Shown here piece by piece: positions 13,658 through 29,696 of a stretch of DNA of 64,000 bases (positions are counted from its first letter, which is position 1; each line of letters starts with the position of its first letter). The stretch is taken from contig NZ_CP016809.1 in NCBI RefSeq assembly GCF_002741055.1, forward strand, positions 496,001-560,000, read 5' to 3'. This DNA is from Paenibacillus ihbetae (GTDB taxonomy: Bacteria > Bacillota > Bacilli > Paenibacillales > Paenibacillaceae). Both the position numbers and the translations under genes were made by a program. The notes beneath the pieces were generated by a model, which worked only from the letters and a program-made list of their open reading frames with translations, made no database searches and had not been told where the DNA came from.

Positions 13658-14392
13658 ATGAAGGCAAGCAGGCCAGAAGCAACAGATCGGCAGGGTGTTT
13701 CCATCATCACCTGCACGAACCGCCGCAGCTATATCCAAAATTTGTTCGCTAATTTTAATCGGCAGTCTTGTGGGCCTAAGGAACTTATCGTCATTATCAA
13801 CCATAATGGCATTCCCCTTGAACCTTATAAGCAATTGGCTGCCCGTCAAGGAAACATTCGCATATACCGCCTTCCTGAGCATCACACTCTGGGCGCATGC
13901 TTGAATTACGCCATAGGCAAGGCGAAATACGGCATCATTGCTAAATTCGACGATGATGATTATTACGCGCCGCGTTATATCGCGGACAGCCTGCAGACTT
14001 TGAGAAGATCCAAAGCCGATGTTCTGGGGAAACGTTCGCATTACATGTATCTGAACGGCTCGAAAACGCTGATCCTTCGTTTTCCGTTTGCCGAGAACCG
14101 TCCGGCGTCCAAGCTGCCGGGTGCTACGCTCATCATAAGAAAAGAAGTGTTTAACCACGTGCGCTTTCCGCACCAAAACGTTGGGGAAGACGACCTGTTT
14201 TGCCTAAGGAGCAAACGAAAGGGCTTCAAGGTATACTCAGGGAACAAATATCATTTTGCTGCAGTCCGACGAAAAAACTCCGCCAATCATACGTGGATCA
14301 TCAGCGACAGCGAGCTGCTGGCCAATCACAAACAAATCCCGGGCGTTCATAACTACAAAAGGTACGTACAGCAAAAACAGGCGGTGCACTAA
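13658..14392 (+). CDS. Family 2 glycosyltransferase, copy A
   Basis: The 244-residue GT-A fold enzyme has the nucleotide-sugar-binding start VSIITCTNRRSYIQNLFANF and a strong metal-binding acidic motif KFDDDDYYAP (about residue 90). The catalytic-base region GEDDLFC (about 170) is intact. There are no membrane spans, so it is a cytoplasmic glycosyltransferase acting on a lipid-linked or protein acceptor. The gene ends with TAA at 14390-14392, one base before the ATG of a paralogue in the same operon. GGAGGGG precedes ATG 13658. Donor and acceptor unknown. Confidence 0.88.
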   Translation: MKASRPEATDRQGVSIITCTNRRSYIQNLFANFNRQSCGPKELIVIINHNGIPLEPYKQLAARQGNIRIYRLPEHHTLGACLNYAIGKAKYGIIAKFDDDDYYAPRYIADSLQTLRRSKADVLGKRSHYMYLNGSKTLILRFPFAENRPASKLPGATLIIRKEVFNHVRFPHQNVGEDDLFCLRSKRKGFKVYSGNKYHFAAVRRKNSANHTWIISDSELLANHKQIPGVHNYKRYVQQKQAVH

Positions 14393-14393
14393 C

Positions 14394-15092
14394 ATGACGA
14401 ATCCCGGAGTCTCCGTTATTACTTGCACGAAGCGGGCGGAATGCCTGAATCGGCTTTTGGCCAATTTCAACAGGCAGAAGTACGATAACAAAGAGCTCAT
14501 CATCATTTTGAATCACGACAGCCTGAAGCTGCCTATATACCTGGAAGCCGCTAAGAAGTATCGCAATATCCGCGTCTACCGCAAGCCTGAGCGAATGTCC
14601 TTGGGAAGCTGCCTGAATTTTGGCGTTCAAGTATCGAAGTTTAGCTATATCGCTAAATTTGATGATGACGATTATTATGCTTCGGGGTATCTCGCGGAGG
14701 GAATGCGGGCAATGATCAAAAAGGGTGCTGACATTGTCGGCAAAAGAGCCCATTTCATGCAGCTTGACGGTCATCAGACCGTTCTCTGCCGCTATGGGAA
14801 CATGGCGAATCGCGAAGTTCCCATCGTGCAGGGAGCAACGCTGCTCGCGAACCGCCGCGTCTTCCGCCATATCCGGTTTCCCGATCAAAACCGCAGCGAA
14901 TGCGTTAGATTTTGTGCAGCGGCGGCTGCGAAGGGATATCGAATTTACGCGACCAGTCCATACAACTTCCTGGCACAGCGGCGCCGCAATTCCCGGAATC
15001 ATACCTGGATCATCAGCGACAAAGAGCTTATGTCCCGAAATGCCAGACAGTTAACCGTGCCTAACATCCGCACATTCGTAAGCCGAGGTTAA
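14394..15092 (+). CDS. Family 2 glycosyltransferase, copy B
   Basis: The 232-residue product is a paralogue of the preceding gene across its whole length: VSVITCTKRAECLNRLLANF, AKFDDDDYYASGYL and the C-terminal RRNSRNHTWIISDKEL match copy A (RRKNSANHTWIISDSEL). Where copy A has GEDDLFC this copy has RSECVRFC, so the usual ED catalytic-base motif is broken. It may have diverged in acceptor handling, lost activity, or work only with copy A. Start ATG 14394 lies two bases after the upstream stop, consistent with translational coupling. A terminator follows. Confidence 0.88.
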   Translation: MTNPGVSVITCTKRAECLNRLLANFNRQKYDNKELIIILNHDSLKLPIYLEAAKKYRNIRVYRKPERMSLGSCLNFGVQVSKFSYIAKFDDDDYYASGYLAEGMRAMIKKGADIVGKRAHFMQLDGHQTVLCRYGNMANREVPIVQGATLLANRRVFRHIRFPDQNRSECVRFCAAAAAKGYRIYATSPYNFLAQRRRNSRNHTWIISDKELMSRNARQLTVPNIRTFVSRG

Positions 15093-15271: not shown

Positions 15272-16000
15272 TTACGATGAAAGGACCATCATGCCGATGC
15301 CTAAAAATTGCACGGAGCCTATAATCTCGATGATGCCCACCTTCATCGGCTTGATGACTTTTCCGGAATACAGCAAACTCCGGCTAAGCGGGAACAGAAA
15401 CGCGGCAGTGAGCCAGGGTAAGCCGAGGATCGGCGGAACGGCCAGCGCGGCAAGATGATATACCCTCGAGTAGACCGAATACCGCTTGTTCTTCCGTTCC
15501 CTGAAGACGGATTTCACGAAGAAAACGGTTCCGGCAAAATAGACCGCATTCACCAAAACTACAACCGCCAGTTCTTTGCCGACTGTACCGCCGCCAAGCA
15601 TATAGGCCGCTGCGCCGCCTGTGCAGAACAGCAGGATAGCGCATAAATCATTCAGAAGTGCACGCTCCTTGCGCCGGACGACATGCCATATGTTAACGGT
15701 GATCAATGCAAGCAGCACCGGAGCGAGCCATAGCATCCACGGATCATGCCAGATGACGGGGATGAGAAATCCCGCTCCGGCAGCAGCATATCCGATTCCC
15801 CAATACACCTCCGAGGTTTGTCTCCTCCTCTTGAGCGACTGTAACAGCGGATACGAAGCGAAATAGAGCAGCAGCCAAGCCAGAAACAGCGGAGCATGCA
15901 AAATCGTTGGCTTCGCCGCCGCCATTCCGATCATATAGGGTACGATGAGCATCGCCCATCCTCCGTGTTCCCGCGGTATAACGATCTTCGATCGGTTCAT
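15272..16000 (-). CDS. ywiC: YwiC-like membrane protein
   Basis: The 242-residue protein has about six to eight predicted membrane spans and begins with the YwiC hallmark IPREHGGWAMLIVPYMIG. In B. subtilis ywiC stands in the nar-fnr region, and it does so here, 125 bases after narK, which supports assignment to the family. Its function is unknown; a role in anaerobic respiration or quinone/haem chemistry is only suggested by this conserved position. I chose ATG 16000 over the upstream ATG 16066 because GGGGAGAAGG lies directly before it and the family motif begins there. Confidence 0.85.
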   Translation of the reverse strand: MNRSKIVIPREHGGWAMLIVPYMIGMAAAKPTILHAPLFLAWLLLYFASYPLLQSLKRRRQTSEVYWGIGYAAAGAGFLIPVIWHDPWMLWLAPVLLALITVNIWHVVRRKERALLNDLCAILLFCTGGAAAYMLGGGTVGKELAVVVLVNAVYFAGTVFFVKSVFRERKNKRYSVYSRVYHLAALAVPPILGLPWLTAAFLFPLSRSLLYSGKVIKPMKVGIIEIIGSVQFLGIGMMVLSS

Positions 16001-16125
16001 CCTTCTCCCCTGCACTTTCAAAGTGGAATGTCGTTCCGGACCCCTGGCACCAGAACTTGAAGACACTTCCTGTAATCTTATTTCTCCAAACCCTTTGCTT
16101 TACCGCAGCTTCGACACTCCAGCCC

Positions 16126-17649
16126 TTATGTTGTCCCCGCCTTTGCTCGTTCCGCTGCCGCTTGTGCCGTAATGTCGCTGAATGTGCCGACATAATGAAT
16201 AATGTCCCCCGTTTCGTCCTTTACGGCATTGATCGTAAGCAGCTCGAGATACTCTTCCCCGTTCTTTCTGCGGTTCCAAATTTCACCTTGCCAGCTCCCC
16301 CGCTCTGCAATTTCCGTCCACATCCCGGTATAGAAGGCCTTGGATTGCCGCCCGGATTTCAGGATGCTCGGATTTCTCCCGATCACCTCTTCCTCGGTAT
16401 ATCCGGTCAGCGCAGTGAATGCCGGATTGACCGCATGGATTCTTCCATTGGCATCCGTGACCAGAATGCCTTGCCCGGTCGAGTTAAACACCTTCGAGGA
16501 AACCGAGAGTTTGTCCTGGAAATACATCCAGACGACAATGATGAAGCTGGCAAGGGCCACTTGGGACAAAGCCATGAATCCGATCGCGTACTGACCTGTA
16601 ACCGAATGGATGAACGACAGCATGAGCGGCGGAAAAAAACCGCCGAGACCTCCCATCATGGACACGATGCCGTTTACGATCCCGGCCTGCTTGTTGAAAT
16701 ACAGCGGAACCAGCTTGAAGATGATTCCGTTTCCCAGCCCGGCACCGACCGCAATCGTTAGACAACCGACGGTATATAATCCGATCGACGGGGAGAATGC
16801 CAACAGGATCGCGGCGCCCGTAAGTCCGATAAACACGCCCATCAGCAGGAACAGCGGTTTGAATTTGTCGGCGAGAAAGCCGCCGATGGGCCGCATCAAT
16901 GTAGCAAGCAGGATGAATCCTGCCGTCCGCAGCCCGGCATCCACCTTGGCGAGCTCGAAATGCGTGACCAAGAAGTTCGGCAGGTAGACGGTAAAGGCGA
17001 CAAATGAACCGAAGGTAATAAAATAAAAGAGCGAGAAATACCACAGCTTATCGTTCTTGTACACGCCTCGAATCTGTTCCAAGATCGGCGTCCGAACCTT
17101 GATTTCCTTGCGGTCGCCCAAGAACGCGTTCAATCCCGCGAAGATCAGCAGCAGGACCAGATACAGCTGCACCGTTCTCGACCAGCCGATCTGCGTGGCA
17201 ATCACCGGCGTTGCAAATGTCGTCACGGCCGTGCCCAGGTTCCCCATGCCGTAAATGCCGTTCACCAGCCCAAGCTTTTCTTTGGCATAATACTTCGGAA
17301 GCGAGGTGACGCCGACGGAAAACACAGCGCCCCCGATGCCGAGAAACAGTCCTCCAATGACAAGATGCGTAAACGTGGTGGCCGTGCTGATCAGATATAC
17401 CGGAAATAAAAGCGCGATAAAGCTGAACATGAATACCACTCTTGCCCCGACGACATTCGCATAATAGCCGAGCGGAATGCGCAGCACGGAGCCCAGCACC
17501 ACCGGGATGGCGGTCAGGATGGCAACGCGGCCGTCCGGAACCGCAATATCCTCGCGGATAAACGGCAGCAGCGCGGATATGATCACCCATACCATAAAAC
17601 CGAGCACCAGATTCATCGTTTGCAGCGGCAGCTGCACTTTTTTGATCAT
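16126..17649 (-). CDS. narK: Nitrate/nitrite transporter NarK with C-terminal PAS domain
   Basis: The 507-residue protein has two parts. Residues 1 to about 385 form a twelve-span MFS transporter of the NarK/NasA group, with both nitrate-signature regions (GMGNLGTAVTTFATP and GLGNGIIFKLVP followed by GIVSMMGGLGGFFPP). Residues about 386-507 form a cytoplasmic PAS domain with PAC end: VNPAFTALTGYTEEEVIGRN, RRKNGEEY and YVGTFSDIT. Ordinary NarK proteins end after span 12. The PAS could sense redox state, haem or flavin and gate transport, or dock a partner. ATG 17649 has AAGGTG at good spacing; ATG 17655 is the alternative. An FNR-type box lies upstream. Confidence 0.93.
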   Translation of the reverse strand: MIKKVQLPLQTMNLVLGFMVWVIISALLPFIREDIAVPDGRVAILTAIPVVLGSVLRIPLGYYANVVGARVVFMFSFIALLFPVYLISTATTFTHLVIGGLFLGIGGAVFSVGVTSLPKYYAKEKLGLVNGIYGMGNLGTAVTTFATPVIATQIGWSRTVQLYLVLLLIFAGLNAFLGDRKEIKVRTPILEQIRGVYKNDKLWYFSLFYFITFGSFVAFTVYLPNFLVTHFELAKVDAGLRTAGFILLATLMRPIGGFLADKFKPLFLLMGVFIGLTGAAILLAFSPSIGLYTVGCLTIAVGAGLGNGIIFKLVPLYFNKQAGIVNGIVSMMGGLGGFFPPLMLSFIHSVTGQYAIGFMALSQVALASFIIVVWMYFQDKLSVSSKVFNSTGQGILVTDANGRIHAVNPAFTALTGYTEEEVIGRNPSILKSGRQSKAFYTGMWTEIAERGSWQGEIWNRRKNGEEYLELLTINAVKDETGDIIHYVGTFSDITAQAAAERAKAGTT

Positions 17650-17713
17650 CCCCATCACCTTTTCTCTCGAAAAATGAATGGCTTTCTTATCATGGATCCC
17701 CAATCCCATTGTA

Positions 17714-17734: not shown

Positions 17735-17776
17735 AATAGGGAAGTTCCCTTAACCTTGGCAAGGAACTTCCCTATT
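17735..17776 (-). terminator. Perfect 14-bp inverted repeat between nreC and narK
   Basis: AATAGGGAAGTTCC (17735-17748) and GGAACTTCCCTATT (17763-17776) are exact complements with a 14-base loop. It is the right place for the nreABC terminator, but the following T tract is weak (ATCTTTG). Each arm contains TAGGG-N4-TCC, close to the NreC site TAGGG-N4-CCCTA known from staphylococci, so it may instead be an NreC target for narK. Confidence 0.5.
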
Positions 17777-17818: not shown

Positions 17819-18466
17819 TCAGAAATCCAGCAGCTTCTTCTTAAGCGCATATTCAACCAGCTGAGGCCGGCTCTTCAAGTTGAGCTTCTCCATAATTTTA
17901 GCTTTGTGCGCTTCAACCGTCTTCACGGACACATACAGCATCTCCGCAATCTCTTTATTCCCGTATCCCTTGGCAATCAATGGCAAGATCTCGAGCTCCC
18001 GCTGCGAAAGACTGCTGAGCGGATCTTGCTCGGGGCTTTCGCTGTCCTTCTTGATAAATTCCCGCACCAGGGAGGTGGCCATCTGCGGATGAATGTACGT
18101 GCCTCCGGCGTAAACCATCCGTATGGCGGAGATCAGCTCATCATCCGGCGCGTTCTTGAGCACATAGCCGGACGCTCCGTTCTTCAACACATGAAACAAA
18201 TAATCCTCGTCGTCATACATGGTCAACACGATAATCTTGGTGCCCGGATAATCGGCACTGATTTTGCCGGTAGCAATAAGTCCGCTTTCGCCAGGGGGCA
18301 TGCTCAGGTCCATCAGCAGCACATCCGGCCTATGTTTGGCTACCATCGCGTATGCCTCCAGTCCGTCCGCAGCCGTTGCTACAACCTCCATATCCTCCTG
18401 ATAGTTGAGAATCATCGAGAACCCGCTGCGGACGACGGCATGGTCGTCGGCAATGACAATCTTCAT
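17819..18466 (-). CDS. nreC: Response regulator NreC (NarL/FixJ family)
   Basis: The 215-residue protein has a receiver domain with acidic pocket DD at residues 7-8, phosphorylation site Asp53 ([11 protein letters not shown]) and conserved Lys near residue 105, then a LuxR-type helix-turn-helix ([20 protein letters not shown] and [16 protein letters not shown]). Its start overlaps the end of nreB by four bases (ATGA). In Staphylococcus, phospho-NreC activates nar, nir and narT promoters in the absence of oxygen and presence of nitrate; gene order and domain match support the same role here. Confidence 0.93.
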
Positions 18467-19542
18467 GAACGGTCCCCCTCCTGGATTACATCTTGAGACA
18501 GCGGTATACGGAGCTGCACCGTTGTCCCTGCGCCGACCGCCGAAGCCAGCGTGAACTGCCCGCCGACCAGCTCCGCCCGCTCCCGCATGCCGTACAATCC
18601 GAGCCCGGTCCCTTGCGCCTCGTTAATAAACATATTAAAGCCGACACCTTCATCCCGCACGGTCAGCTGAAGGACCCCATTCTCCTCCCACAGCCGCACA
18701 TGAACCTCATCCAGCCCGGAATACTTCAGCGCATTCAGCACGGCCTCCTGGCAAACCCGGTAAACGACGGTTTCAATTTCGTTGCTGTACCGGGCTGCCG
18801 CAAGCTCGGCGGAAAAATGCACAAGCAGCCCATAATTCTTCTCCATCCATTTAAAATGCGAGCGAAAGGCAGCCTCGAGACCCAGATCGTCCAGCGATGC
18901 AGGACGAAGCTCTACCGATAAATGCCGGATATCATCCAGCAGCCGGGTCAAGGACTGCTCCGTCTGCTGAATTTTGTTGAGCACATCATCGTTAACGTTC
19001 ATGTATTTCAGCACCCGCAAATCCACCAAGGAGCTGAGAAGCTCCTGGGCGACGCTGTCATGCAGCTCGCGGGAAATCCGCTTGCGTTCATCCTCCTGCG
19101 CTTTGATCACATATTTCAGCATATGATTACGCTGCAGCATTTCCTGCGTCTTCTGCTGCTTGGTAAGATCCAGCAGCATCAGTACCCGGATACCTTGTTC
19201 TTCGTCGATCGTATGATAGCTTGCCGCGAACGGGACGACGCCCTCGTCCCTTGTCCTTAGGTATACTTGAAAGGAAGAGAACTCTCCCTTAGGGTAATCC
19301 AAATAGCACCGGGCGCAGGACATCAGCTCCTGTTCATCCGTGTATCCCTCGCAGGTTTGACAGAACGAATCGTCAATCCCCGACTGAATCCGCTCGATCA
19401 CATCGACCTCCAGAATCCGCTCTGCAGCCGGATTCATGCCGACAACGCCGCCTTTTTGATCCATGAAGAAGATGGCTTCCGTACCCTTGCGGTACAGCTT
19501 ATCGAGCAGTTCGCTCAATCGATCTCCGGTCATGGTAATCAA
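18463..19542 (-). CDS. nreB: Oxygen-sensing histidine kinase NreB ([4Fe-4S] PAS type)
   Basis: Numbered from ATG 19533, the 356-residue kinase has a PAS domain carrying CQTC and CARC (Cys58, 61, 73, 76), the CX2C-X11-CX2C spacing of staphylococcal NreB, which binds an oxygen-labile [4Fe-4S] cluster. His158 in [14 protein letters not shown] is the phospho-acceptor (HisKA_3), followed by an HATPase domain with DEGVGFNMF and [13 protein letters not shown]. No membrane spans, so it is a soluble sensor. GGAGG is 19 bases from ATG 19533 but 10 from a TTG at 19542 that overlaps the nreA stop (TTGA), so TTG with translational coupling is preferred here. Confidence 0.93.
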
Positions 19543-20009
19543 GCCTGCGACACCTCCCTGATCCGAAAAGCTCCGAACGTCGCCCCGAGCTGCTCCCGGA
19601 AATCGGTAAAAACCGCCGGATTCATTCGGTTCTCCTCCCGGAACCCGGCCAGCAAAACGCCCATTACCCGGGCCTCCACCCACAGCGGAAGGGCCCCCAG
19701 ACTCTTGAGCTTCTCGGCGGCAATGATCGGAAAATTAAATAAGTCGCGTGCACCAATATCGGCGTTAACGTTTTGAATGAGCATCGATTTTCCGGTCTTG
19801 AACACAATTCCGGCGACGCCTTTGCCCGAATGGAGCACGATCCGTTTAAACCGCTCATTGTGATTGCCTGAAGCATACTGCCACGTCAGCACAAACCGGT
19901 CTTCGGCAGGCTGGACGAGCGCTAGCGACACGAAATCGAATTGAAACCGATCCCGCAGCCTATCGATTTCCAGCTGATAATCATAGCCAGACTGTTCTAT
20001 TACCGTCAT
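19539..20009 (-). CDS. nreA: NreA nitrate receptor (GAF-like domain)
   Basis: The 156-residue single-domain GAF protein matches NreA, which binds nitrate and inhibits NreB phosphorylation when nitrate is absent. The segment GVAGIVFKTGKSMLIQNVNA is typical of the family's ligand loop, and the compact length agrees with NreA (about 150). It precedes nreB and nreC with overlaps of a few bases, forming the nreABC operon that lies directly downstream of narGHJI. Confidence 0.9.
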   Translation of the reverse strand: MTVIEQSGYDYQLEIDRLRDRFQFDFVSLALVQPAEDRFVLTWQYASGNHNERFKRIVLHSGKGVAGIVFKTGKSMLIQNVNADIGARDLFNFPIIAAEKLKSLGALPLWVEARVMGVLLAGFREENRMNPAVFTDFREQLGATFGAFRIREVSQA

Positions 20010-20059: not shown

Positions 20060-20752
20060 CTACGATTCATATTTACGGTGCTTTCTATAAAGGATATATC
20101 TTCTTCCGACATAATTCAACGGAACGCTCCAGACATGGACAAGACGGGTGAACGGCCATAAAGCGAAAATACCGAGCCCGGCCAGAATGTGGATTTTGAA
20201 AGACAAAGGCACCTCTGTCATTAGTGACGCATCCGGACGAAGGACGAACAATTGGCGGAACCATACCGATATCGTCTCCCGGTAATTGAAATCCGGCTCC
20301 ACTGCATTCGTAACCAGCGTACTATACATCCCCATAATAATGATGAACAGCAGCAGCACATTGACGATCAGATCCGATGCCGTGCTGAGCTTCCGCACGC
20401 TTCGCAGCGTAAACCTGCGCGATGTCAGCAGAACCATGCCTGCCAATGTCAGCATGCCGAAAGCGCCGCCGACATACACCGCTCCGATATGGTACAAATG
20501 CTCATTAACGCCGACCGCCTCCATCCAGGACTGGGGGATGCCGAGTCCCGCGACATGTCCCCCGATGACCGGGATGATGCCCAGATGGAACATCAGGCTG
20601 CCTGCTTTCAGCCGCTTCTTCTCGATAAACTCGCTGGATTTGGCCGTCCAGTTAAACTGATCCGTCCGGTATCTGTAGATATGTCCGACAATAAAGACCA
20701 CGATGCAGACATAAGGGACAATGACCCACAAGAGCTGATCCATCATGTTCAT
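20060..20752 (-). CDS. narI: Respiratory nitrate reductase gamma subunit (cytochrome b)
   Basis: The 230-residue membrane protein has five predicted spans and the conserved haem-b histidines in MFHLGIIPVIGGHVAGLG (about residues 51-64) and KIHILAGLGIFALWPFTRLVHV near the C terminus (about 185-205). It passes electrons from menaquinol to NarH. ATG 20752 overlaps the narJ stop by four bases (ATGA) and is preceded by GGAGG. It is the last gene of narGHJI; nreA follows 50 bases later. Confidence 0.95.
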   Translation of the reverse strand: MNMMDQLLWVIVPYVCIVVFIVGHIYRYRTDQFNWTAKSSEFIEKKRLKAGSLMFHLGIIPVIGGHVAGLGIPQSWMEAVGVNEHLYHIGAVYVGGAFGMLTLAGMVLLTSRRFTLRSVRKLSTASDLIVNVLLLFIIIMGMYSTLVTNAVEPDFNYRETISVWFRQLFVLRPDASLMTEVPLSFKIHILAGLGIFALWPFTRLVHVWSVPLNYVGRRYILYRKHRKYES

Positions 20753-21318
20753 CCGAGCTCCGCCTCCTGAATCGTGCACATTTTGAGCGTGTCGCGAAGC
20801 GCACGTATTAATCCGGCGTACGGGCTGTCCAGCCGATCCAGCTCCTTCAACAGATGATACGTTCCGTCCTCCAAGACCGCCAGCATAAGGGACAGGCTCT
20901 CCTTCGCTTCCTTCCTGTGCCCCTCCCACCGGGCGGCATATAGAAATTCACACATCAGGGGCAGATAATCCGAGAGCTCGGAGCTGGCTATTTCCAGACC
21001 GAACAGCTCGTAGGTCTCCTTTAGCCGGACAAGCATTTGCCCCCGCTCCCTGCTGTCCTCCATCTTGAAATAGGTCATGTACAGCGTCGTCTTTTTTTGA
21101 AAGTCAAACGTCTGAACATACAATTCTTCAATCTGCTCCAAGCTGAACTCATGCATGCTGTCCCAATATCGCTTGATTGAAGCATAAGCCGGGTGGCCCG
21201 CATCCCAGGCCTCCTCCAAGAGCGAAGGGTGAAAGTCCAGTTTGTCCGGATAGGTGAGGTGCCGTGCAAAAAAGCCGAATGACGGCTGCTGCATCAGGAG
21301 CTTATCAAGATCAATCAC
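20749..21318 (-). CDS. narJ: Nitrate reductase assembly chaperone NarJ
   Basis: The 189-residue all-helical TorD/NarJ-family chaperone helps insert the molybdenum cofactor into NarG and is not part of the final enzyme. The conserved EQIEELYVQTFDFQKKTTLY motif (about residue 55) marks the NarJ subgroup. I placed the start at GTG 21318, eight bases into the end of narH, with GGGGGG before it; the frame extends further upstream only inside narH. Length agrees with Bacillus NarJ (about 184). Confidence 0.92.
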   Translation of the reverse strand: MIDLDKLLMQQPSFGFFARHLTYPDKLDFHPSLLEEAWDAGHPAYASIKRYWDSMHEFSLEQIEELYVQTFDFQKKTTLYMTYFKMEDSRERGQMLVRLKETYELFGLEIASSELSDYLPLMCEFLYAARWEGHRKEAKESLSLMLAVLEDGTYHLLKELDRLDSPYAGLIRALRDTLKMCTIQEAELG

Positions 21319-22846
21319 GCCATATCCCCCCGTAGAAGTTTTCTTCATACAACTCCTTGCCGCTCTTATCGAAAGGATTATCCGGCCCGCAGCCGCCGCA
21401 GCCCGACTCAAAGCCTTCAAATCCCTGTGAGCGGTACACGTCCAGATGCTGCTCCTTATGCGAGGTTGGGATGACAAACCGGTCTTCGTATTTTGCGATA
21501 GCCAGCAAGCGGTACATTTCCTTCACCTGCTGCGTGGTAAGCCCTACCCGCTCCAATCGGCTGTCATCGTATTCGGCTCCCGAGGATTCGGCCCGCATGT
21601 AGGAACGCATCATCGCCATCCGCTGCAGCGCTCCTTTGACCACGGCGGTATCGCCTGCCGTCAGCAGGTTCGCTAAATATTGGATCGGGGTGCGCATCTC
21701 CTCGATGGCCGGAAAGATCAGATCCGGATTCGCTACGGAATCCTTGCCCTCAAACACATTCATAATCGGACTAAGCGGCGGAACATACCATACCATCGGC
21801 AATGTCCGATATTCCGGGTGAAGCGGGAATGCCAGCTTGTATTCGATTGCGAGCTTATACACCGGGGATTGCTGCGCCGCCTCGATCCACTCTTCGGCGA
21901 TCCCGTCCGCCCGCGCCTGCCGGATGACCTCAGGATCGTGCGGATCCAAGAACAAACTGCACTGCGCTTCGTATAAATCCTGCTCGTCGGGAGTAGACGC
22001 GACTTCCTGAACTCGGTCTGCGTCATAGAGCAGCACGCCCAGATAACGAATCCGCCCGGTGCACGTTTCGGAGCATACCGTCGGCAGTCCAGCCTCGATT
22101 CTAGGAAAGCAGAAGGTGCATTTCTCCGCCTTGTTCGTTTTCCAGTTGAAGTAGACCTTTTTGTACGGACAGCCTGTCATGCAATATCTCCAGCCCCGGC
22201 ATGCTTCCTGGTCCACCAGCACGATGCCGTCCTCATCGCGCTTGTACATCGCTCCGGACGGGCAGGAAGCGACGCAGCTTGGGTTCAGGCAGTGCTCGCA
22301 CAGGCGGGGCAAATACACCATGAACGATTGCTCGAAGTTGAACTTGATTTCCTCCTCGATCTTCTCGATATTCGGATCCCGCTGCCCCGTTACATGTGCC
22401 CCGGCCAAATCGTCTTCCCAGTTCGGTCCCCATTCCAAATCCATCGTTTCGCCGGTTACGGCCGATTTCGGCCGGGCGACCGGCTGATGCTTCTTCTCCC
22501 CCGATGCGGTCAGATGCTCGTAGTTATAAGTCCAAGGCTCGTAATAATCCTTCATTTCCGGCATATCGGGATTGTAGAAGATTTTGCCGAGCGCGATTTT
22601 GGACAATCTGCTGCCGGATTTGAGCTCCAGCTTGCCTTTGTTCAGCGTCCATCCGCCTTTGTACTTCTCTTGATCCTCCCAGCGGACAGGATAGCCGACG
22701 CCCGGTTTCGTCTCTACATTGTTGAACCACATATATTCTGCGCCCGGTCTATTGGTCCAGGTGCTCTTGCAAGTCACGCTGCAGGTGTGGCAGCCGATGC
22801 ATTTATCCAAATTCATGACCATGGCGACTTGTGCTTTAATTTTCAA
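21311..22846 (-). CDS. narH: Respiratory nitrate reductase beta subunit (Fe-S)
   Basis: The 511-residue ferredoxin-like subunit carries four cysteine clusters: CIGCHTCSVTCK (residue 16 onward), CEHCLNPSCVASCP, CRGWRYCMTGCP and CTFCFPRI with CSETC. The Trp in CRGW replaces one cysteine, giving the [3Fe-4S] cluster typical of NarH; the others bind [4Fe-4S]. It connects NarG to NarI on the inner membrane face. Start codon is TTG 22846, inside the end of narG (11-base overlap), with GAGGTGG upstream. Confidence 0.96.
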   Translation of the reverse strand: MKIKAQVAMVMNLDKCIGCHTCSVTCKSTWTNRPGAEYMWFNNVETKPGVGYPVRWEDQEKYKGGWTLNKGKLELKSGSRLSKIALGKIFYNPDMPEMKDYYEPWTYNYEHLTASGEKKHQPVARPKSAVTGETMDLEWGPNWEDDLAGAHVTGQRDPNIEKIEEEIKFNFEQSFMVYLPRLCEHCLNPSCVASCPSGAMYKRDEDGIVLVDQEACRGWRYCMTGCPYKKVYFNWKTNKAEKCTFCFPRIEAGLPTVCSETCTGRIRYLGVLLYDADRVQEVASTPDEQDLYEAQCSLFLDPHDPEVIRQARADGIAEEWIEAAQQSPVYKLAIEYKLAFPLHPEYRTLPMVWYVPPLSPIMNVFEGKDSVANPDLIFPAIEEMRTPIQYLANLLTAGDTAVVKGALQRMAMMRSYMRAESSGAEYDDSRLERVGLTTQQVKEMYRLLAIAKYEDRFVIPTSHKEQHLDVYRSQGFEGFESGCGGCGPDNPFDKSGKELYEENFYGGIWRD

Positions 22847-25800
22847 GCCAATCCACCTCTTTCATTTTGCGGACAGCCACGTACACATCCCGCTGATTTC
22901 CGATCGGTCCGTAATAATTGAAGCCATAGCTGAGCTGCGCGTAGCCTCCCACCATCTGGGTCGGCTTGACGTGAATCCGCGTCGGCGCATTATGGCTGCC
23001 GCCCCGGTCTTTCGTAATCTCCGAGCCCGGCACATTGATGTGCTTATCCTGAGCGTGGTACATGTACATCGTGCCCTTCGGCATCCGGTGGCTGACAACC
23101 GCCCTTGCGGTAACGACCCCGTTGCGGTTGTATACCTCGAGCCAGTCGTTGTCCTGGATGGCATGAGCTGCCGCGTCATCGTTGTTGATCCATACCGTCG
23201 GCCCGCCGCGGAAAAGCGTCAGCATATGCAAATTATCCTGATAGGTGCTGTGAATGTTCCACTTTCCGTGCGGTGTTAGATACCGGAGAACAAGCCCATC
23301 CTTCCCGCCGGCGACCGGCTTGTCGCGAGGACCCATCACCATCGGGGGAAGCGTCGGCTTGTAGACCGGCAGCGCTTCGCCGAACTGCAGAAACAGCTCA
23401 TGGTCGATGTAATAGTGCTGTCTTCCGGTTAGCGTACGAAACGGAACCAGGCGTTCAATATTCGTCGTAAAGGGCGAATACCGTCTGCCCATCTTGTTGG
23501 AACCGCTGAACACCGGCGTCGGGATGACTTCCCGCGGCTGGGCGGTTATGCTCTGGAAGGTGATTCGCTCGGCTGCCCGGTCTGCCGATATATCCTTCAG
23601 CTTGACGCCGGTATCCTCCTCCATCGCCTCCCAGGCGCGCTGGGAGACCCTCCCGTTCGTGGCTGACGATATATTCAGGATGACATCCGCCGCATGCCGG
23701 GCCGTGTACAGTTTGGGCAGCCCATCCTTGATCGTTCCATCCTGGTATGTCCCGTTGATTCGTTTCAGTTCTTCGAATTCTTCAGCCACCGGGAAGCTTA
23801 CGCCGTGAGCCCCAACCTTGCCGGCGGCCAAGTTCGGCCCGAGCGTTATATATTTATCGTAAATTAACGTATAATCACGCTCGACCACCGTCAGATTCGG
23901 CATCGTAGTTCCCGGAATCGCATGAGTCTCGCCGGCCCTCCAATCCTTGACCAGACCGAACGGCTGCGAAATTTCGCCCTTGCTTTCGTGCGCGAGCGGA
24001 GTGGCAACCAGATCCTTATACACGCCCGGCAGGTGGGTCTTGGCCATGTCCGAGAACTCCTTAGCGATCGTTCTGTAAATATCCCAGTCCGAACGCGATT
24101 CCCACAAAGGGTCTACCGCAGGGTTAAACGGGTGAACGAAGGGATGCATATCCGTTGAGGATAAATCCGTCTTCTCATACCAGGTTGCTGCAGGAAGCAC
24201 CACGTCTGCGTACATCGGCGTGGCGGTCATTCGAAAATCAAGCGCGACAAGCAGATCCAGCTTGCCTTCCACATCGCCGCGCCACACCACTTCCTCCGGC
24301 TTCTCTTCTTCATTCGGCTGCGACAGGAGATTGTCAGAGGCGCCCAGCAAGTGCTTCATGAAATATTCCTGACCTTTCGCTGAGCTGGATATCAGATTGG
24401 ATCGCCATACAAACAGCGAACGCGGGAAGTTTTCCGGGGCATCGGGATCCTCAATCGCAAATCGCGTCTCACCCTTAACCAGCTGATCCAGCGCATGCTG
24501 GACGATCTCTTCGGCCGTGCGCTTCCCGTCTCTCTCCGCCTCCTCTGCAAAAGCAAGACTGCTCTTGTTAAATTGCGGATAGGACGGCAGCCATCCGAGG
24601 CGTGCAGCCAATACGTTATAATCAGCAGGATGACGGTACCGGATTTCCTCGCCGGTCGGGGATTTCAGCGCATCCATTCCCGATTCCTCGTATTTCCATT
24701 GGTCGGTGGCGAAATAGAAGAAGGAGGTCGCATTCTGCTGGCGCGGCGGTCCCTGCCAGTCTTTGGAAAAGGCGACGGTCGACCAGCCCTCGATCGGCCG
24801 GCATTTCTCCTGACCCACATAATGCGCCCAGCCCCCGCCGTTCACTCCCTGGGATGCCGTAAGGATGACCAGATTCAAGATGGAGCGATAAATCGTGTCG
24901 CTATTGAACCAATGGTTAATTCCGGCGCCCATGATAATCATGGACCGGCCGCCGGTATCCAGCGCGTTCTGCGCAAATTCGCGGCCGATCTGGATCACGA
25001 CCGAAGCCTTTACCCCGGTGATCGCCTCCTGCCATGCCGGCGTATAGAACGAGCCTGCGTCCTCATAACTTGCGGCTTCGAGCTCGCTCCCGGTCCGCCG
25101 GATTCCGTACTGGCTCAGCATTAAGTCATAGACGGTCGCGGCGAGACATGTTGTTCCATCGGCCAAATGAACCTTTCTTGCTGGAATCATCCGTTCGAAT
25201 ATGCCGCTGCCGCTGGAATCGAAATAGGGAAAACCAATTTTATGCCAATCCGCATCATGGCCTTCCATCGAAAGCGCCGGTTCGATCCGTGTCCCGTCTT
25301 CCCGTTCCAGCATTAAATTCCATTTCTTTCCCTGCTCCCATCGCTGGCCCATCGTACCGTTCGGGACGATGATTTCATCCGCTGCCTCATCCAGAATCAC
25401 CGGCTTCCACTCGGCATGCGGCGAGGCATCTCCCAGGTCGCTTGCCCGCAGGAAACGCCCGGCTTTCAGACCGTCTCCATGCGCATCGAGCATAATCAAG
25501 AACGGCATGTCGGTATACTGCTTCGCATAATTCAGAAACATCGGCTCCTGGCGCTCCCGATAATATTCGTTCAAAATGACGTGCGTCATTGCCTGGGCAA
25601 GAGCTGCGTCCGTTCCGGGATTCGGTGCGAGCCAGTTATCGGCGAATTTCACGTTCTCCGCATAATCCGGAGCCACGGATACGACCTTGGTTCCCTTGTA
25701 GCGCACCTCGGTCATAAAGTGTGCGTCCGGCGTGCGCGTCAACGGCACATTGGAGCCCCACATAATAAGGTAGCCGGCATTATACCAGTCGCTTGACTCG

Positions 25801-26507
25801 GGAACGTCGGTCTGCTCCCCCCAGATTTGCGGCGAGGCGGGCGGCAGATCCGCATACCAATCGTAAAAGCTGAGCATCTCCCCACCCAGCAGGGAAATGA
25901 ACCGGGCTCCGGACGCATAACTGATCATCGACATGGCCGGGATCGGCGTAAATCCAGCGATCCGATCGGGCCCGTATTTACGAATCGTATAAATCAGCTG
26001 CGCGGAGATGAGCTTGGTTGCATCCGGCCAAGTAACGCGCACATGGCCTCCCTTTCCTCGAGCCTGCTTGTAAGCCTTGGCTTGATCCGGGTCCTCCACA
26101 ATGCTGGCCCAGGCCGCAACCGGATCCCCGTGCACCTCCAAAGCCTTGCTCCACATCCGCCAAAGCTTGCCGCGGATATATGGGTGTTTGATTCGAAGCG
26201 GGCTGTATTCATACCAGGAGAAGGAAGCGCCACGGGGACAGCCTCTCGGCTCAAATTCCGGCATATCCGGCCCGCATGACGGATAATCGATCTGCTGGTT
26301 CTCCCAGGTAATGATCCCGTTCTTCACGAACACCTTCCAGCTGCAGGACCCGGTACAGTTCACGCCGTGCGTCGTCCTGACGACCTTATCGTGCGACCAG
26401 CGCTTGCGGTACATATCCTCCCATTCCCGGCTCTTCTCTTCCAGGACGGACCAATTGTCCGAGTAGCTCTCCACCCTTTTGAAGAATGTCAGTGCTTTGC
26501 GTTTCAT
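22836..26507 (-). CDS. narG: Respiratory nitrate reductase alpha subunit (Mo-bisMGD)
   Basis: The 1223-residue catalytic subunit reduces nitrate to nitrite. Its N terminus has the FS0 cluster motif THGVNCTGSCSWKVFVKNG with His as one ligand and further cysteines in PSCGPDMPEFEPRGCPRG. Molybdopterin-binding signatures such as WGSNVPLTRTPDAHF follow. No twin-arginine signal is present, so the enzyme faces the cytoplasm. The frame is open to 26567, but ATG 26507 matches the family start and AGGAG stands 12 bases upstream. Control by NreC is suggested by palindromes at 26610-26643. Confidence 0.96.
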   Translation of the reverse strand: MKRKALTFFKRVESYSDNWSVLEEKSREWEDMYRKRWSHDKVVRTTHGVNCTGSCSWKVFVKNGIITWENQQIDYPSCGPDMPEFEPRGCPRGASFSWYEYSPLRIKHPYIRGKLWRMWSKALEVHGDPVAAWASIVEDPDQAKAYKQARGKGGHVRVTWPDATKLISAQLIYTIRKYGPDRIAGFTPIPAMSMISYASGARFISLLGGEMLSFYDWYADLPPASPQIWGEQTDVPESSDWYNAGYLIMWGSNVPLTRTPDAHFMTEVRYKGTKVVSVAPDYAENVKFADNWLAPNPGTDAALAQAMTHVILNEYYRERQEPMFLNYAKQYTDMPFLIMLDAHGDGLKAGRFLRASDLGDASPHAEWKPVILDEAADEIIVPNGTMGQRWEQGKKWNLMLEREDGTRIEPALSMEGHDADWHKIGFPYFDSSGSGIFERMIPARKVHLADGTTCLAATVYDLMLSQYGIRRTGSELEAASYEDAGSFYTPAWQEAITGVKASVVIQIGREFAQNALDTGGRSMIIMGAGINHWFNSDTIYRSILNLVILTASQGVNGGGWAHYVGQEKCRPIEGWSTVAFSKDWQGPPRQQNATSFFYFATDQWKYEESGMDALKSPTGEEIRYRHPADYNVLAARLGWLPSYPQFNKSSLAFAEEAERDGKRTAEEIVQHALDQLVKGETRFAIEDPDAPENFPRSLFVWRSNLISSSAKGQEYFMKHLLGASDNLLSQPNEEEKPEEVVWRGDVEGKLDLLVALDFRMTATPMYADVVLPAATWYEKTDLSSTDMHPFVHPFNPAVDPLWESRSDWDIYRTIAKEFSDMAKTHLPGVYKDLVATPLAHESKGEISQPFGLVKDWRAGETHAIPGTTMPNLTVVERDYTLIYDKYITLGPNLAAGKVGAHGVSFPVAEEFEELKRINGTYQDGTIKDGLPKLYTARHAADVILNISSATNGRVSQRAWEAMEEDTGVKLKDISADRAAERITFQSITAQPREVIPTPVFSGSNKMGRRYSPFTTNIERLVPFRTLTGRQHYYIDHELFLQFGEALPVYKPTLPPMVMGPRDKPVAGGKDGLVLRYLTPHGKWNIHSTYQDNLHMLTLFRGGPTVWINNDDAAAHAIQDNDWLEVYNRNGVVTARAVVSHRMPKGTMYMYHAQDKHINVPGSEITKDRGGSHNAPTRIHVKPTQMVGGYAQLSYGFNYYGPIGNQRDVYVAVRKMKEVDWLEN

Positions 26508-26579
26508 AGGACACGTCAACTCCTTCTGCTTGAATGACCATGGTTGGGGAATCCATGTATCGTCCATTCGTATGCCTTC

Positions 26580-26643
26580 ATTATGCAGGTATCGCCAGAG
26601 GCATCCTACTAGGGAAACTCCTATATTCGCAGGGAAAATCCCT
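26580..26643 (-). promoter_or_regulatory. narG promoter with two NreC-like palindromes
   Basis: CATAAT (minus strand, 26585-26580) is a good -10, while no clear -35 is present. TAGGG-AAAC-TCCTA (26610-26623) matches the staphylococcal NreC site TAGGG-N4-CCCTA at 9 of 10 positions and is centred near -43. AGGGA-AAA-TCCCT (26631-26643) is centred 20.5 bases further upstream, two helical turns, on the same face. A poor -35 with activator sites at these positions fits activator dependence. Confidence 0.55.
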
Positions 26644-26776: not shown

Positions 26777-27475
26777 CTATATGATTTTACGAATCTCTTG
26801 GAAAAGAACATTGTTCTCCAAATGGATATGCTCATAGGTGTCTTTCTCAAGATCCGCAAGACGTTGATAGACAAGCCTGTATGTGCCGCATGCATCATCC
26901 GGCAGTTCCCAATCATTGGTGACTTCCCGAAGCTCCTGCAATATGCCCCCTGCACTGGAGTGCTCCTCTTCAAGCCCGGTTATGAGGGGCAGCAATTGCT
27001 TTCGAGCAACCGACTCGGGTTCGGTCAGTACCAGGACCATAAGCGGGAACACATTCTGCTCTTCATCCTGCGTGTGCTCCAGCAGCTCCTTCTTGAGCTG
27101 TGAGAACAGCTCCTGAACCCGGAGCAGCTCGGGATGCCGTTCCCCGTGGACACGGGCAAGTTTTGTGACATAAGGGGTCAGGGCAGGCAGTTCATCGCGC
27201 AGGAATGCATGATGCTTGTGCTGAATATGTTCGATGAGCTCAGGCGCGCTCAGGGAAGCCGGACGCCTCTCCTGATACTTCTCAAATTTGTCTTGCAGCA
27301 GCTTGACCTGACTTAGCACTTCTTCGGGATCCAGCCCCCGCTGCGCAGCTGCTGCCTCCAGGGTAATCTGGCCGCCGCAGCAAAAATCGATGCGAAGCGA
27401 ACGGAACAGGTCAGCCGTCTGAGGGACGCAGGAAACGATATCCGAGACATGGGTATGAAGCGTAAAGGTACTCAT
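26777..27475 (-). CDS. scdA: Iron-sulfur cluster repair di-iron protein RIC/ScdA
   Basis: The 232-residue protein has the N-terminal ScdA_N domain with a CC pair (LRIDFCCGGQITLEAAAAQRG, about residues 28-48) and a C-terminal hemerythrin-like domain with metal-binding His and Glu in HIQHKHHAFLRDELP, LLEHTQDEEQNVFP, EEEHSSAGGIL and YEHIHLENNVLF. RIC proteins repair Fe-S clusters damaged by nitric oxide or oxidative stress. It stands between narG and divergent hmp, and both ric and hmp have FNR-type boxes. AGGAGG precedes ATG 27475. Confidence 0.95.
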   Translation of the reverse strand: MSTFTLHTHVSDIVSCVPQTADLFRSLRIDFCCGGQITLEAAAAQRGLDPEEVLSQVKLLQDKFEKYQERRPASLSAPELIEHIQHKHHAFLRDELPALTPYVTKLARVHGERHPELLRVQELFSQLKKELLEHTQDEEQNVFPLMVLVLTEPESVARKQLLPLITGLEEEHSSAGGILQELREVTNDWELPDDACGTYRLVYQRLADLEKDTYEHIHLENNVLFQEIRKII

Positions 27476-27544
27476 AGAAAAAACCTCCTGTCATTTGTGG
27501 ACCAATGGCTATTGCGAAGTCATCTGGCCGTTTCTCACGCCTCA

Positions 27545-27587
27545 AGTATAGAGAGGCCTCCCATCCGCCTCAGTGATTGCAGTCATA
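27545..27587 (-). promoter_or_regulatory. ric promoter with FNR-type box at -41.5
   Basis: On the minus strand TATGA-CTGCAA-TCACT (27587-27572) matches TGTGA-N6-TCACA with two mismatches. A TATACT -10 (27550-27545) places the box centre at about -41.5, a class II activator position. Confidence 0.6.
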
Positions 27588-27726
27588 GTGATTGGGGACA
27601 AATTGTGAACGACAGGCCCCAGAGCACCCATTCGAAGCTCTATAAAAGCCTCCCTAAAGAAAGCAGTCACGCTTCTTTTAAAATGCTCCTGTTCAAATTT
27701 TAAAGTCACAAATTGTTACGATTTTA

Positions 27727-27770
27727 TGTGATTCAAATCACAATACTGTTCAAGGAGGGGTATCTATAAT
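27727..27770 (+). promoter_or_regulatory. hmp promoter with perfect FNR box at -41.5
   Basis: TGTGA-TTCAAA-TCACA (27727-27742) is a perfect consensus FNR/CRP-type palindrome. TATAAT lies at 27765-27770, so the predicted start near 27777 puts the box centre at about -42. The AAGGAGGGG at 27752-27760 falls upstream of this start and is not the ribosome binding site. Confidence 0.75.
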
Positions 27771-27806
27771 GGTACCATCCACTTTATGAAAGCGAGGCGC
27801 AGCTTT

Positions 27807-29015
27807 ATGCTAAGCGAACAAACGATCGCAACCATCAAATCAACGGTTCCTGTCCTGGAACAACATGGCGTTACCATCACGTCCACCTTCTACCGGAATA
27901 TGTTCAAGGCGCATCCGGAGCTGTTGAATATGTTCAACCATGCCAACCAGCAACGAGGCCGCCAGCAAACCGCCCTTGCAGACACGGTGTATGCCGCGGC
28001 CCAGCACATCGACCGTCTGGAGGCCATTTTGCCTGCCGTGAAGCAAATCGCGCACAAACACCGGAGTCTTGGCGTCAAACCGGAGCATTATCCTATTGTC
28101 GGGGAACATCTGCTAGGAGCAATTAAAGAGGTGCTTGGAGAAGCAGCAACCGATGAAATTTTACAAGCGTGGAAGGAAGCATACGGCGTTATCGCGGATG
28201 CATTCATATCCGTGGAAGATGAGATGTACAAGCAAACGGAGACGCAGGTCGGGGGATGGAGCGGCTTCAAACCGTTCCGGGTCAATCGAAAAGTGCGGGA
28301 GAGCGAAGTTATTACGTCCTTCTATCTTGTTCCGGAGGACGGAGGCCCGCTGGCCTCTTTTGAGCCTGGACAATATGTCAGCATCAGACTGCAAATTCCC
28401 GGTGAAGCTTACACCTTGAACCGCCAGTACAGCCTGTCCGATGCGCCTGGCAAGCCGTATTACCGGATATCAGTAAAACGGGAAGCTGAAGGCACCGATA
28501 CGCCGGAAGGAAAAGTATCGAATTACCTCCATCAGTCCGTTGAAGAGAACGGGATCGTGGAGCTTTCGGCTCCTGCCGGCGATTTTTCATTAAGCCTGGA
28601 GGATTCCTCACCAGTTGTCCTGATCAGCGGCGGTGTTGGACTAACCCCGATGATCAGCATGCTCAACTCCGTTGTTGAAGCACAGCCGGAGCGTAAGGTT
28701 ATGTTTATCCACGCAGCACGGAATGCCGGTGCCCATGCAATGAAAGAGCATGTCGAGCAGCTCGCGGAAATGAATCCGAATATTTCTTACCGGTGGTGCT
28801 ACAGCAGCCCGGGCGCAGAGGATGGCGGATACCATAAGAGGGGATGGATCGACCAGGCATGGTTAAAAGATACCGTTCCGGGCCAGTCGGCCGTTTATTA
28901 TTTCTGCGGCCCAATTCCGTTCATGAAGACGATCAACGATGCGCTTCTGGCAATGGACATTCCTTCAGACCGGATCCATTACGAGTTCTTCGGCCCTACT
29001 GCGGGCCTTTCCTGA
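27807..29015 (+). CDS. hmp: Flavohaemoprotein, nitric oxide dioxygenase
   Basis: The 402-residue enzyme oxidises NO to nitrate with O2 and NAD(P)H. An N-terminal globin domain (about 1-138; proximal-His region [20 protein letters not shown]) is followed by a ferredoxin-reductase-type FAD domain (RQYSLSDAP near 205) and an NAD domain ([15 protein letters not shown] near 272). An in-frame ATG at 27786 lies only about nine bases after the predicted transcription start, so ATG 27807, with GAGG nine bases before it, is the better start. It overlaps the convergent Crp/Fnr gene by 37 bases. Confidence 0.95.
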
Positions 29016-29500
29016 CGCAGCAGCCGGTTGACCGTTTCCCGGCGCAGCCCGATCAGCTGGCCGATCTCCACTTGGGTCAAGACGTCCGTGAGACGAGCGG
29101 GTGAAATATACTGCTCGAACCACCGCTGAAGCTTGCGTAGACGCTCAATGGGCTCAATTTCGCTTAATTGATCAATCCGCTCCTGCATCATCCGCAGCTT
29201 ATCCTGCAGCTGGAGCGCTATGGAACGATAACGTACCGGGTCCTCCTCCAAGGCCCCATACCATTCATCCGGGCGGTAAACCTGAATCTCGCTTGTCACT
29301 AATGCGACTGCCGTCCCGAAATAGGGCTTGGGCGTAATTAAGGAATGATGCGGAATCGTTTCTCCAGGGACAATCAAATTCACTAGCAAAGCATTGCCGT
29401 CCTGGTGTACGCGCTCGATTTTGAGCATGCCGCTCTTCACATGAAACAGCGGGCCGGATTCGCCTTGCCGGAATAAGGTTTCTCCTTTATGAAGGATCAT
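28979..29500 (-). CDS. Short, cysteine-free Crp/Fnr family regulator
   Basis: The 173-residue protein has a cyclic-nucleotide-binding-like beta barrel (about 1-85), a dimerisation helix (about 92-115) and a winged helix whose recognition helix [13 protein letters not shown] fits TGTGA-type sites. It contains no cysteine, so it cannot hold the [4Fe-4S] cluster of E. coli or Bacillus Fnr, and it lacks the usual N-terminal extension. The frame begins at 29539, but GGAGG eight bases before ATG 29500 marks the start. Location after hmp and the nearby FNR boxes suggest it controls this cluster. The signal it senses is unknown. Confidence 0.88.
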
Positions 29501-29696
29501 AAACAGGACCTCCTCAATCATGACACTGTCTCTAATCATAGCGTAAGCGTCATAACGGGATCAAGAAGGCCTTGTTATCAGATTATAATGAAGTCGCAGC
29601 TGCCGCCCGCCCGGTTTATCAGGTTGTCCTGAGAACAGGGCTTGCTGCCTACTTGAAGACCGAATCCGCCTACCTGCTGCCAGGTACGCCCGTAAC

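What the first reader, a model, noticed from the sequence alone, without database searches (positions are those of the whole stretch)
16126..17649. Nitrate transporter NarK fused to a PAS sensory domain
The MFS part has both nitrate-signature regions, and an intact PAS-PAC domain of about 120 residues continues in frame without a break. Transport and sensing are joined in one chain next to NreABC, which itself senses oxygen and nitrate. The PAS domain could gate nitrate entry by redox state or report transport to NreB or NreA. I know of no characterised NarK with this layout.
Basis: partly seen in the sequence, partly recalled or inferred. Interest (0 to 1): 0.75.

Follow-up and report, generated by a model that had tools for sequence, protein, structure and literature searches.

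The report
Nitrate transporter with flavin-type sensor tail
A soil bacterium's nitrate-import pump has, built into its tail, a sensor domain of the kind that normally holds a redox-sensitive flavin; many related bacteria share this arrangement, and it may let the pump shut itself off when oxygen is present, though this has not been tested.

Summary
In detail: one intact frame (16126-17649, minus strand) joins a NarK-type nitrate transporter to a C-terminal PAS domain, beside nreABC and narGHJI. It is not a local oddity: the 80 named loci kept by a genome scan, and the 120 best-listed protein hits, carry the same fusion. On a tree of the transporter part the simplest reading is one old fusion within class Bacilli and about six losses of the PAS. 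The PAS is of the FAD-binding NifL/MmoS/Aer type: Trp464 and Asn479 (527-residue numbering) are invariant in 142 of 142 fused rows, its predicted fold matches NifL best, and no Cys or His is conserved, against LOV, haem or Fe-S. PAS and NreABC occur independently of each other, so signalling to NreA/NreB is not favoured. The PAS ends the chain and joins TM12 by one predicted helix. I infer that flavin redox state gates nitrate entry in cis, which would give a sensor for the known oxygen shut-off of nitrate uptake. Against: flavin binding and gating are untested, some oxygen-inhibited NarKs have no PAS, and three loss lineages keep nar and nre genes. This genome's second NarK-type transporter, beside nasC and nirB, has no PAS.

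The parts
16126..17649 (-). narK-PAS fusion gene (507 aa from ATG 17649; 527 aa from the upstream ATG 17709)
   Evidence: one open frame; ribosome-binding site before 17649; MFS_1 + PAS
16516..17649 (-). NarK-type transporter part (ORF residues 21-398), with nitrate arginines R77 and R273
   Evidence: best fold match E. coli NarK 4u4w
16480..16590 (-). predicted continuous helix 374-410 running from TM12 into the PAS N-cap
   Evidence: AlphaFold model, mean pLDDT 82.6; blocks 371-410 at 78, 90, 85, 80
16162..16494 (-). PAS domain of the NifL/MmoS/Aer FAD type (ORF residues 406-516)
16318..16320 (-). codon of Trp464, on predicted helix 457-470, aligned with Aer W70
   Evidence: ungapped alignment with E. 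coli Aer; helix; invariant 142 of 142
16273..16275 (-). codon of Asn479, aligned with Aer N85
   Evidence: Asn85 named as flavin contact in PMC12540587 (passage)
17737..17751 (-). palindrome AAGGGAACTTCCCTA upstream of narK, probable NreC site
   Evidence: sites of this type upstream of narK in 90 of 113 loci against 87 of 2000 random 500-mers
17763..17774 (-). second, imperfect copy (TAGGGAAGTTCC), about two helical turns upstream of the first
   Evidence: sequence; paired sites in many relatives
17819..18466 (-). nreC response regulator
   Evidence: Response_reg + GerE
18463..19683 (-). nreB histidine kinase (ORF; the true start is probably internal), with C-x2-C-x11-C-x2-C in its N-terminal part
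   Evidence: HisKA_3 + HATPase_c; sequence
19539..20009 (-). nreA GAF-type nitrate sensor
   Evidence: NF038250 147.3 bits, below its cut-off of 175
20060..26567 (-). narGHJI respiratory nitrate reductase (narI, narJ, narH, narG)
   Evidence: ORFs; NarH Pfam domains; same order in relatives; narG, narJ and narI named by reading the sequence, no family search
15272..16066 (-). ywiC-like gene directly downstream of narK-PAS
   Evidence: PF14256

Best explanation
This is a respiratory nitrate transporter (NarK/NarT branch of the NNP family) with a built-in flavin redox switch. Shown here: an intact fusion; a PAS with the NifL/Aer FAD signature; a fusion held under purifying selection across Bacilli, most simply one origin with repeated losses; occurrence independent of NreABC. 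Inferred: the PAS binds FAD. When the cell is oxidised (oxygen present) the flavin is oxidised, the PAS changes conformation or dimer state, and the change passes through the helix shared with TM12 to slow or stop nitrate entry; when the cell is reduced, entry resumes. NreABC would set how much transporter is made and the PAS how active it is.
For: Nearest solved relatives of the PAS are MmoS 3ewk and NifL 2gj3, both FAD domains (table passage of PMC8694187); the predicted PAS fold matches 2gj3 first (rmsd 1.1 A, TM 0.89, 35% identity). PMC10468136 (passages) names a Trp on helix F-alpha as main FAD determinant, with Asn or His as second residue; W464 and N479 align with Aer W70 and N85. Both are invariant in 142 of 142 fused rows and 120 of 120 listed protein hits; of 10 weak PAS matches elsewhere in this genome 5 cover both columns and none has either residue. 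No Cys in 136 of 142 PAS domains, one in 6; no column with His in more than 20 of 142. The PAS ends the chain with a variable 2-25 residue tail, so its only partner in cis is the transporter, joined by one predicted helix. PAS and MFS distances correlate (r 0.70, 37 rows, 0 of 2000 permutations). The second NNP transporter of this genome, beside nirB and nasC, has no PAS. PMC3445494 (passages) reports that respiratory NarK2, not assimilatory NasA, is shut off in air, through redox state, with no sensor found.
Against: No direct test of flavin binding, redox response or transport. NarKs without a PAS, such as M. tuberculosis NarK2, are also oxygen-inhibited (PMC3445494), so the PAS is not the general mechanism. 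In three of about six loss lineages nar and all three nre genes stay, so the PAS is dispensable. Constant linker length (142 of 142) is weak evidence because control loops are as constant (141 or 142 of 142). The PAS diverges faster than the MFS part (mean distance 0.44 against 0.31). LOV (FMN) domains also rank high in the fold search. PMC12540587 also names Arg155 and His83 as Aer flavin contacts, which I could not map (residue 83 of the fetched Aer is Val).
Confidence: 0.5

Rival explanations
1. Transceptor: the PAS reports transport or redox state to NreB, NreA or another protein and so tunes transcription rather than transport.
For: narK-PAS follows nreC directly in the window, and nreA, nreB and nreC lie nearby in 76 of 99 fused loci with enough flank.
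Against: No nre gene found nearby in 15 of 99 fused loci; all three present in 21 of 29 PAS-less loci. The probable NreC site upstream of narK is kept in the 12 PAS-less loci of the window's own family that were listed (L095-L105, L144), though in only 2 of 7 listed PAS-less loci of the small-genome group. No conserved segment follows the PAS.
Confidence: 0.12
2. The PAS gates transport but senses something other than cell redox (for example NO, a quinone or a small ligand), with or without flavin.
For: PAS ligands are diverse (PMC8694187, passages). Genes for a ScdA/hemerythrin-type protein and a flavohaemoglobin-like protein lie upstream of narG, which suggests NO stress (recalled roles).
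Against: The Trp-Asn signature is invariant in the rows examined, and the known proteins of this signature are redox sensors.
Confidence: 0.18
3. Structural passenger: the PAS helps dimerisation, stability or placement of the transporter, without sensing.
For: About six losses on the tree, three of them with nar and all nre genes kept; faster divergence than the MFS part.
Against: Pocket residues are invariant in 142 fused rows; purifying selection, dN/dS 0.088.
Confidence: 0.18

Closest known systems
NarK/NarT nitrate transporters of the NNP family (E. coli NarK; Staphylococcus carnosus NarT)
   Same: MFS fold (first seven PDB matches are NarK or NarU), both nitrate arginines, narGHJI and nreABC as neighbours
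   Different: A C-terminal PAS of about 110 residues; E. coli NarK and the 32 PAS-less rows have none
NifL PAS1 (Azotobacter vinelandii) and MmoS PAS-A, FAD redox sensors
   Same: Best matches by sequence and, for NifL, by fold (35% identity); Trp and Asn at the FAD positions
   Different: There further regulatory domains follow the PAS; here it is the last element and a transporter lies on its N-terminal side
E. coli Aer aerotaxis receptor
   Same: FAD-type PAS on a membrane protein; W70 and N85 equivalents present
   Different: Chemoreceptor with the PAS at the N-terminus; the residue aligned with Aer H58 is Ser452 (Ser, Ala or Thr in the 142 rows; that H58 is the flavin His is recalled)
PAS-GGDEF-EAL c-di-GMP proteins (Ammoniphilus, Paenibacillus, Effusibacillus, Cohnella)
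   Same: Closest non-transporter PAS domains found: 56-59% identity for the ten best-scoring, up to 62% in the list
   Different: Signalling enzymes, not transporters; a likely source of the captured domain (inference)
MFS transporters with fused regulatory domains (CBS, cyclic-nucleotide-binding, PAS, UspA), as reviewed in PMC10710835
   Same: Extra, usually C-terminal, regulatory domain on an MFS transporter
   Different: The passages that I saw name no NarK and no characterised PAS fusion; the 2019 surveys they cite are not held

Membership tests
NNP/NarK nitrate transporter | Two substrate arginines | tested here: met
   R77 = E. coli R89, R273 = R305; 174 of 174 rows
NNP/NarK nitrate transporter | Score above the TIGR00886 curated cut-off | tested here: not met
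   199.4 bits against 311.7; the PAS-less paralogue of this genome also falls short, 292.4
NNP/NarK nitrate transporter | NarK fold | tested here: met
   first seven Foldseek matches are NarK or NarU chains (4u4w, 4iu8, 4u4v, 4jre, 4u4t)
NNP/NarK nitrate transporter | Transports nitrate | not testable with these tools
   needs an uptake assay
FAD-binding PAS (NifL/Aer/MmoS) | Trp on helix F-alpha | tested here: met
   W464 on predicted helix 457-470, aligned with Aer W70; 142 of 142
FAD-binding PAS (NifL/Aer/MmoS) | Asn or His as second residue | tested here: met
   N479 in 142 of 142; no conserved His. PMC10468136 gives Asn for clusters 4 and 14 and His for 9 and 14
FAD-binding PAS (NifL/Aer/MmoS) | Binds FAD | not testable with these tools
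   needs purified protein
LOV domain | Conserved adduct Cys | tested here: not met
   no Cys in 136 of 142 PAS domains
Haem PAS | Conserved axial His | tested here: not met
   65 of 142 have no His in the PAS; no column has His in more than 20
NreB-type Fe-S PAS | Four Cys | tested here: not met
   at most one Cys

The most novel reading that the evidence does not exclude
NarK-PAS is a one-protein redox valve: a flavin in its tail closes nitrate entry when oxygen is available. Bacilli would then have a dedicated, identifiable sensor for the oxygen shut-off of nitrate respiration, whose sensor has not been found in other NarK transporters, and species that lost the PAS would be natural deletion strains.
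Probability: 0.4. Interest if true: 0.78.

Novelty: new variant of a known kind. Interest (0 to 1): 0.6.

Why it matters
[quoted passage not shown] tuberculosis, and found no mutant that escapes it. A NarK with a flavin-type sensor in the same chain, and close relatives that lost it, makes this directly testable with two proteins and one uptake assay. It would be the first case known to me of a PAS domain gating an MFS transporter, and a model for the MFS-PAS fusions mentioned in PMC10710835. Control of nitrate uptake bears on nitrate respiration by soil bacteria.

Tried and rejected
Considered and set aside. (1) Frameshift, chimera or assembly error: 80 of 80 named loci are fused. (2) Haem, LOV-FMN or Fe-S cofactor: no conserved His or Cys. 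(3) Dependence on NreABC: PAS and nre genes vary independently. That search used E 1e-8 without an identity floor, so distant homologues count as present; 44 loci with under 4.5 kb on a side were left out; 5 of the 29 PAS-less loci are distant outgroup rows. (4) Residues of the MFS part that change with PAS loss, as a hint of the contact face: 13 positions at least 93% conserved in fused rows change in two or more of six lineages, mostly conservatively; no structural mapping was done. (5) Linker length as evidence of rigid coupling: control loops are as constant. (6) NreC-like palindromes by window-wide pattern: not above chance, 62 and 64 of 100 shuffles had at least one. Only the comparison across loci is informative; its 113 loci include near-identical ones and 23 have no site. 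(7) Promoter and terminator scan: 6 found against 3.5 and 5 against 4.1 expected.

Limits. Many inner branches of the tree are weakly supported (23 of 53 starred), so the number of losses is uncertain; horizontal transfer of the cluster is likely in places (see Noticed in passing). Of 175 loci given to the row set, L175 and L176 gave no row (transporter part too short), leaving 173 plus the window. In the dN/dS run one of 12 pairs (L014) is an artefact of my script, which loses frame where MAFFT removes a stop sign, and I ignore it; several other pairs had saturated dS. The first quick tree had a very long branch, L002, so I rebuilt without it. Protein search listings show only the 120 best of 5383 and 5753 hits, and one search scored only the 7999 candidates sharing most words. 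Distribution outside Bacillota was not tested by genome search.

Full report
Observation. The frame 16126-17709 on the minus strand is open for 527 codons and encodes an MFS transporter (Pfam MFS_1, 35-359) followed by a PAS domain (PAS_9, 413-515). I number on the 527-residue ORF. The transporter part aligns with E. coli NarK with R77 and R273 at the places of R89 and R305. The predicted structure (49 aligned sequences, mean pLDDT 82.6, pTM 0.71) matches NarK and NarU crystal structures first (ranks 1-7). TIGR00886 scores 199.4 bits, under its cut-off of 311.7, so by that model it is a divergent member of the branch. Gene order is narG-H-J-I-nreA-B-C-narK.

How common it is. A protein search scored 7999 candidates and found 5383 at E up to 1e-3; the 120 best, the only ones listed, carry PAS and MFS Pfam domains and are 71-95% identical, from Paenibacillus, Sporosarcina, Planococcus, Lysinibacillus, Psychrobacillus and others. 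In one genome per species, 101 stretches encoded a relative and the best 80 were kept; 80 of 80 are fused full-length frames, 61-95% identical. In 392 genomes of the order 290 had a match at E up to 1e-40, fused or not (the listing was cut, so I give no fused total). In 398 genomes of the class 122 had a match at E up to 1e-60. In 398 genomes of the phylum 17 had a match at E up to 1e-30; the 7 listed rows that cover both domains are from genomes of the window's own class.

The PAS. Its nearest solved relatives by sequence are MmoS 3ewk and NifL 2gj3, both listed as FAD domains in PMC8694187 (passages). A separate model of the PAS (mean pLDDT 90) matches NifL first (rmsd 1.1 A, TM 0.89, 35% identity); LOV domains also rank high, so the fold alone does not settle the cofactor. 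PMC10468136 (passages) names a Trp on helix F-alpha as the main FAD determinant in the NifL, Aer and MmoS clusters, with Asn and His as secondary ones. W464 lies on predicted helix 457-470 and aligns, without gaps, with W70 of E. coli Aer; N479 aligns with N85, which PMC12540587 names as a flavin contact (passage; it also names Arg155 and His83, which I could not map). Both are invariant in 142 of 142 fused rows and in 120 of 120 listed protein hits. In the 112 non-transporter proteins, 191 of 249 domain matches have both, 58 do not. Of ten weak PAS matches elsewhere in this genome, five cover both columns and none of the five has either residue. There is no Cys in 136 of 142 PAS domains, one in 6, and no column has His in more than 20 rows. 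So the PAS is very probably a flavin domain of the NifL kind; binding itself is not shown.

Origin. The closest non-transporter PAS domains found are in GGDEF-EAL proteins of Paenibacillaceae and neighbours (ten best-scoring 56-59% identical, where E-values may be inflated by proteins with several PAS domains). A maximum-likelihood tree of the transporter part (56 rows; 37 fused, 19 not) needs 7 changes of PAS state (6-7 in the 5-95% range of bootstrap trees; starred branches alone force 3; none of 200 bootstrap trees has 1). With the six outgroup rows PAS-less, the simplest reading is one gain and six losses. For one gain: the junction has one length in 142 of 142 rows, and PAS and transporter distances correlate (r 0.70, 37 rows, 0 of 2000 permutations). 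The other loss lineages are L144, L145, L146, L147 with L148, and nine rows (L149-L157) 54-58% identical from genomes of about 2-3 Mb that I take to be Staphylococcaceae (inferred; unnamed).

What it answers to. Of 99 fused loci with at least 4.5 kb on each side, 76 have nreA, nreB and nreC nearby and 15 have none; of 29 PAS-less loci 21 have all three. Three loss lineages (the 11-genome group, L144, the small-genome group) keep nar and nre; L147 and L148 have nar without nre; L146, in a genome that also has two fused copies, has neither in its flanks; the flank of L145 is too short. In several halophilic Bacillaceae the fusion stands beside a different molybdenum reductase. In L070 this is a NasC-like protein (874 bits, cut-off 1100) with DmsB-like and Rieske proteins, an NreA-like and an NreC-like protein and a kinase with NifL-like PAS domains, all below their cut-offs. 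The PAS therefore follows the transporter rather than the Nre system. Upstream of narK a palindrome of the form AGGG-N4-5-CCCT lies about 100 nt before codon 21, often with a second about 22 nt further, in 90 of 113 loci against 87 of 2000 random 500-mers. It is present in all 12 PAS-less loci of the window's family that were listed, and in 2 of the 7 listed from the small-genome group. NreC-P is reported to bind a GC-rich palindrome at narGHJI, nir and narT (PMC8139620, PMC5694512; passages), so these are probable NreC sites and NreABC probably sets narK transcription.

Mechanism. The PAS is the last element: the tail after residue 512 varies from 2 to 25 residues. On its other side the model shows one helix from 374 to 410, TM12 running into the PAS N-cap. 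In NifL, changes in the N-cap (A'-alpha) helix disturb redox signalling (PMC3466315, passages). I therefore infer that flavin oxidation acts back on TM12 and the transporter. [quoted passage not shown] NarK2 of M. tuberculosis is the control point; its two cysteines do not explain it, no obvious quinone site was seen, and B. subtilis NasA in the same cells is not inhibited. In this genome the second NNP transporter, without PAS, lies beside nirB and nasC, both above their cut-offs, as expected if only the respiratory pump is redox-gated. The limits: NarK2 itself has no PAS reported, and three lineages that dropped the PAS still keep nar and nre genes.

Literature. Searches for a NarK with a PAS listed three papers in all; none of the passages that I read describes one. 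PMC10710835 (passages) says that PAS fusions to MFS transporters exist, citing Willson et al. 2019, not held here. The kind is known in outline; this family, its cofactor type, its history of loss and the redox-gate proposal are what this report adds.

Verdict. Real, conserved, not unique to this genome; cofactor type well supported; gating in cis plausible and untested.

Noticed in passing
17737-17774: Tandem AGGG-N-CCCT palindromes upstream of narK, conserved in position in many Bacilli (90 of 113 loci); probable NreC operators.
   Followed up: partly
26610-26623: Similar palindrome (TAGGGAAACTCCTA) about 43 nt upstream of narG; not above chance on its own.
   Followed up: no
L070 2006-11107: narK-PAS of Thalassobacillus lies in a cluster with a NasC-like molybdenum reductase, DmsB-like and Rieske proteins, NreA-like and NreC-like proteins and a kinase with NifL-like PAS domains; possibly an unusual nitrate-reducing system.
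   Followed up: partly
L010, L017, L018: Three records named Shouchella carry the whole nar-nre-narK-PAS cluster at 84-87% identity to the window protein, closer than many Paenibacillus; suggests horizontal transfer of the cluster.
   Followed up: no
26777-29539: Next to narG: a ScdA/hemerythrin-type protein, a flavohaemoglobin-like protein and a cyclic-nucleotide-binding (Crp/Fnr-type) protein.
   Followed up: no
13658-15092: Two adjacent, similar-looking family-2 glycosyltransferase genes, perhaps a tandem duplication.
   Followed up: no
L166 and L146 (genome G519): One genome has two fused narK-PAS copies and one PAS-less copy 64% identical to the window protein.
   Followed up: no
L175: A relative whose match begins only at residue 121 (open frame 480 aa), possibly an N-terminally broken copy.
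   Followed up: no
L048, L040: Records named Arthrobacter and Bacillus subtilis carry narK-PAS loci 72-73% identical to the window; I suspect mislabelled genomes, not tested.
   Followed up: no
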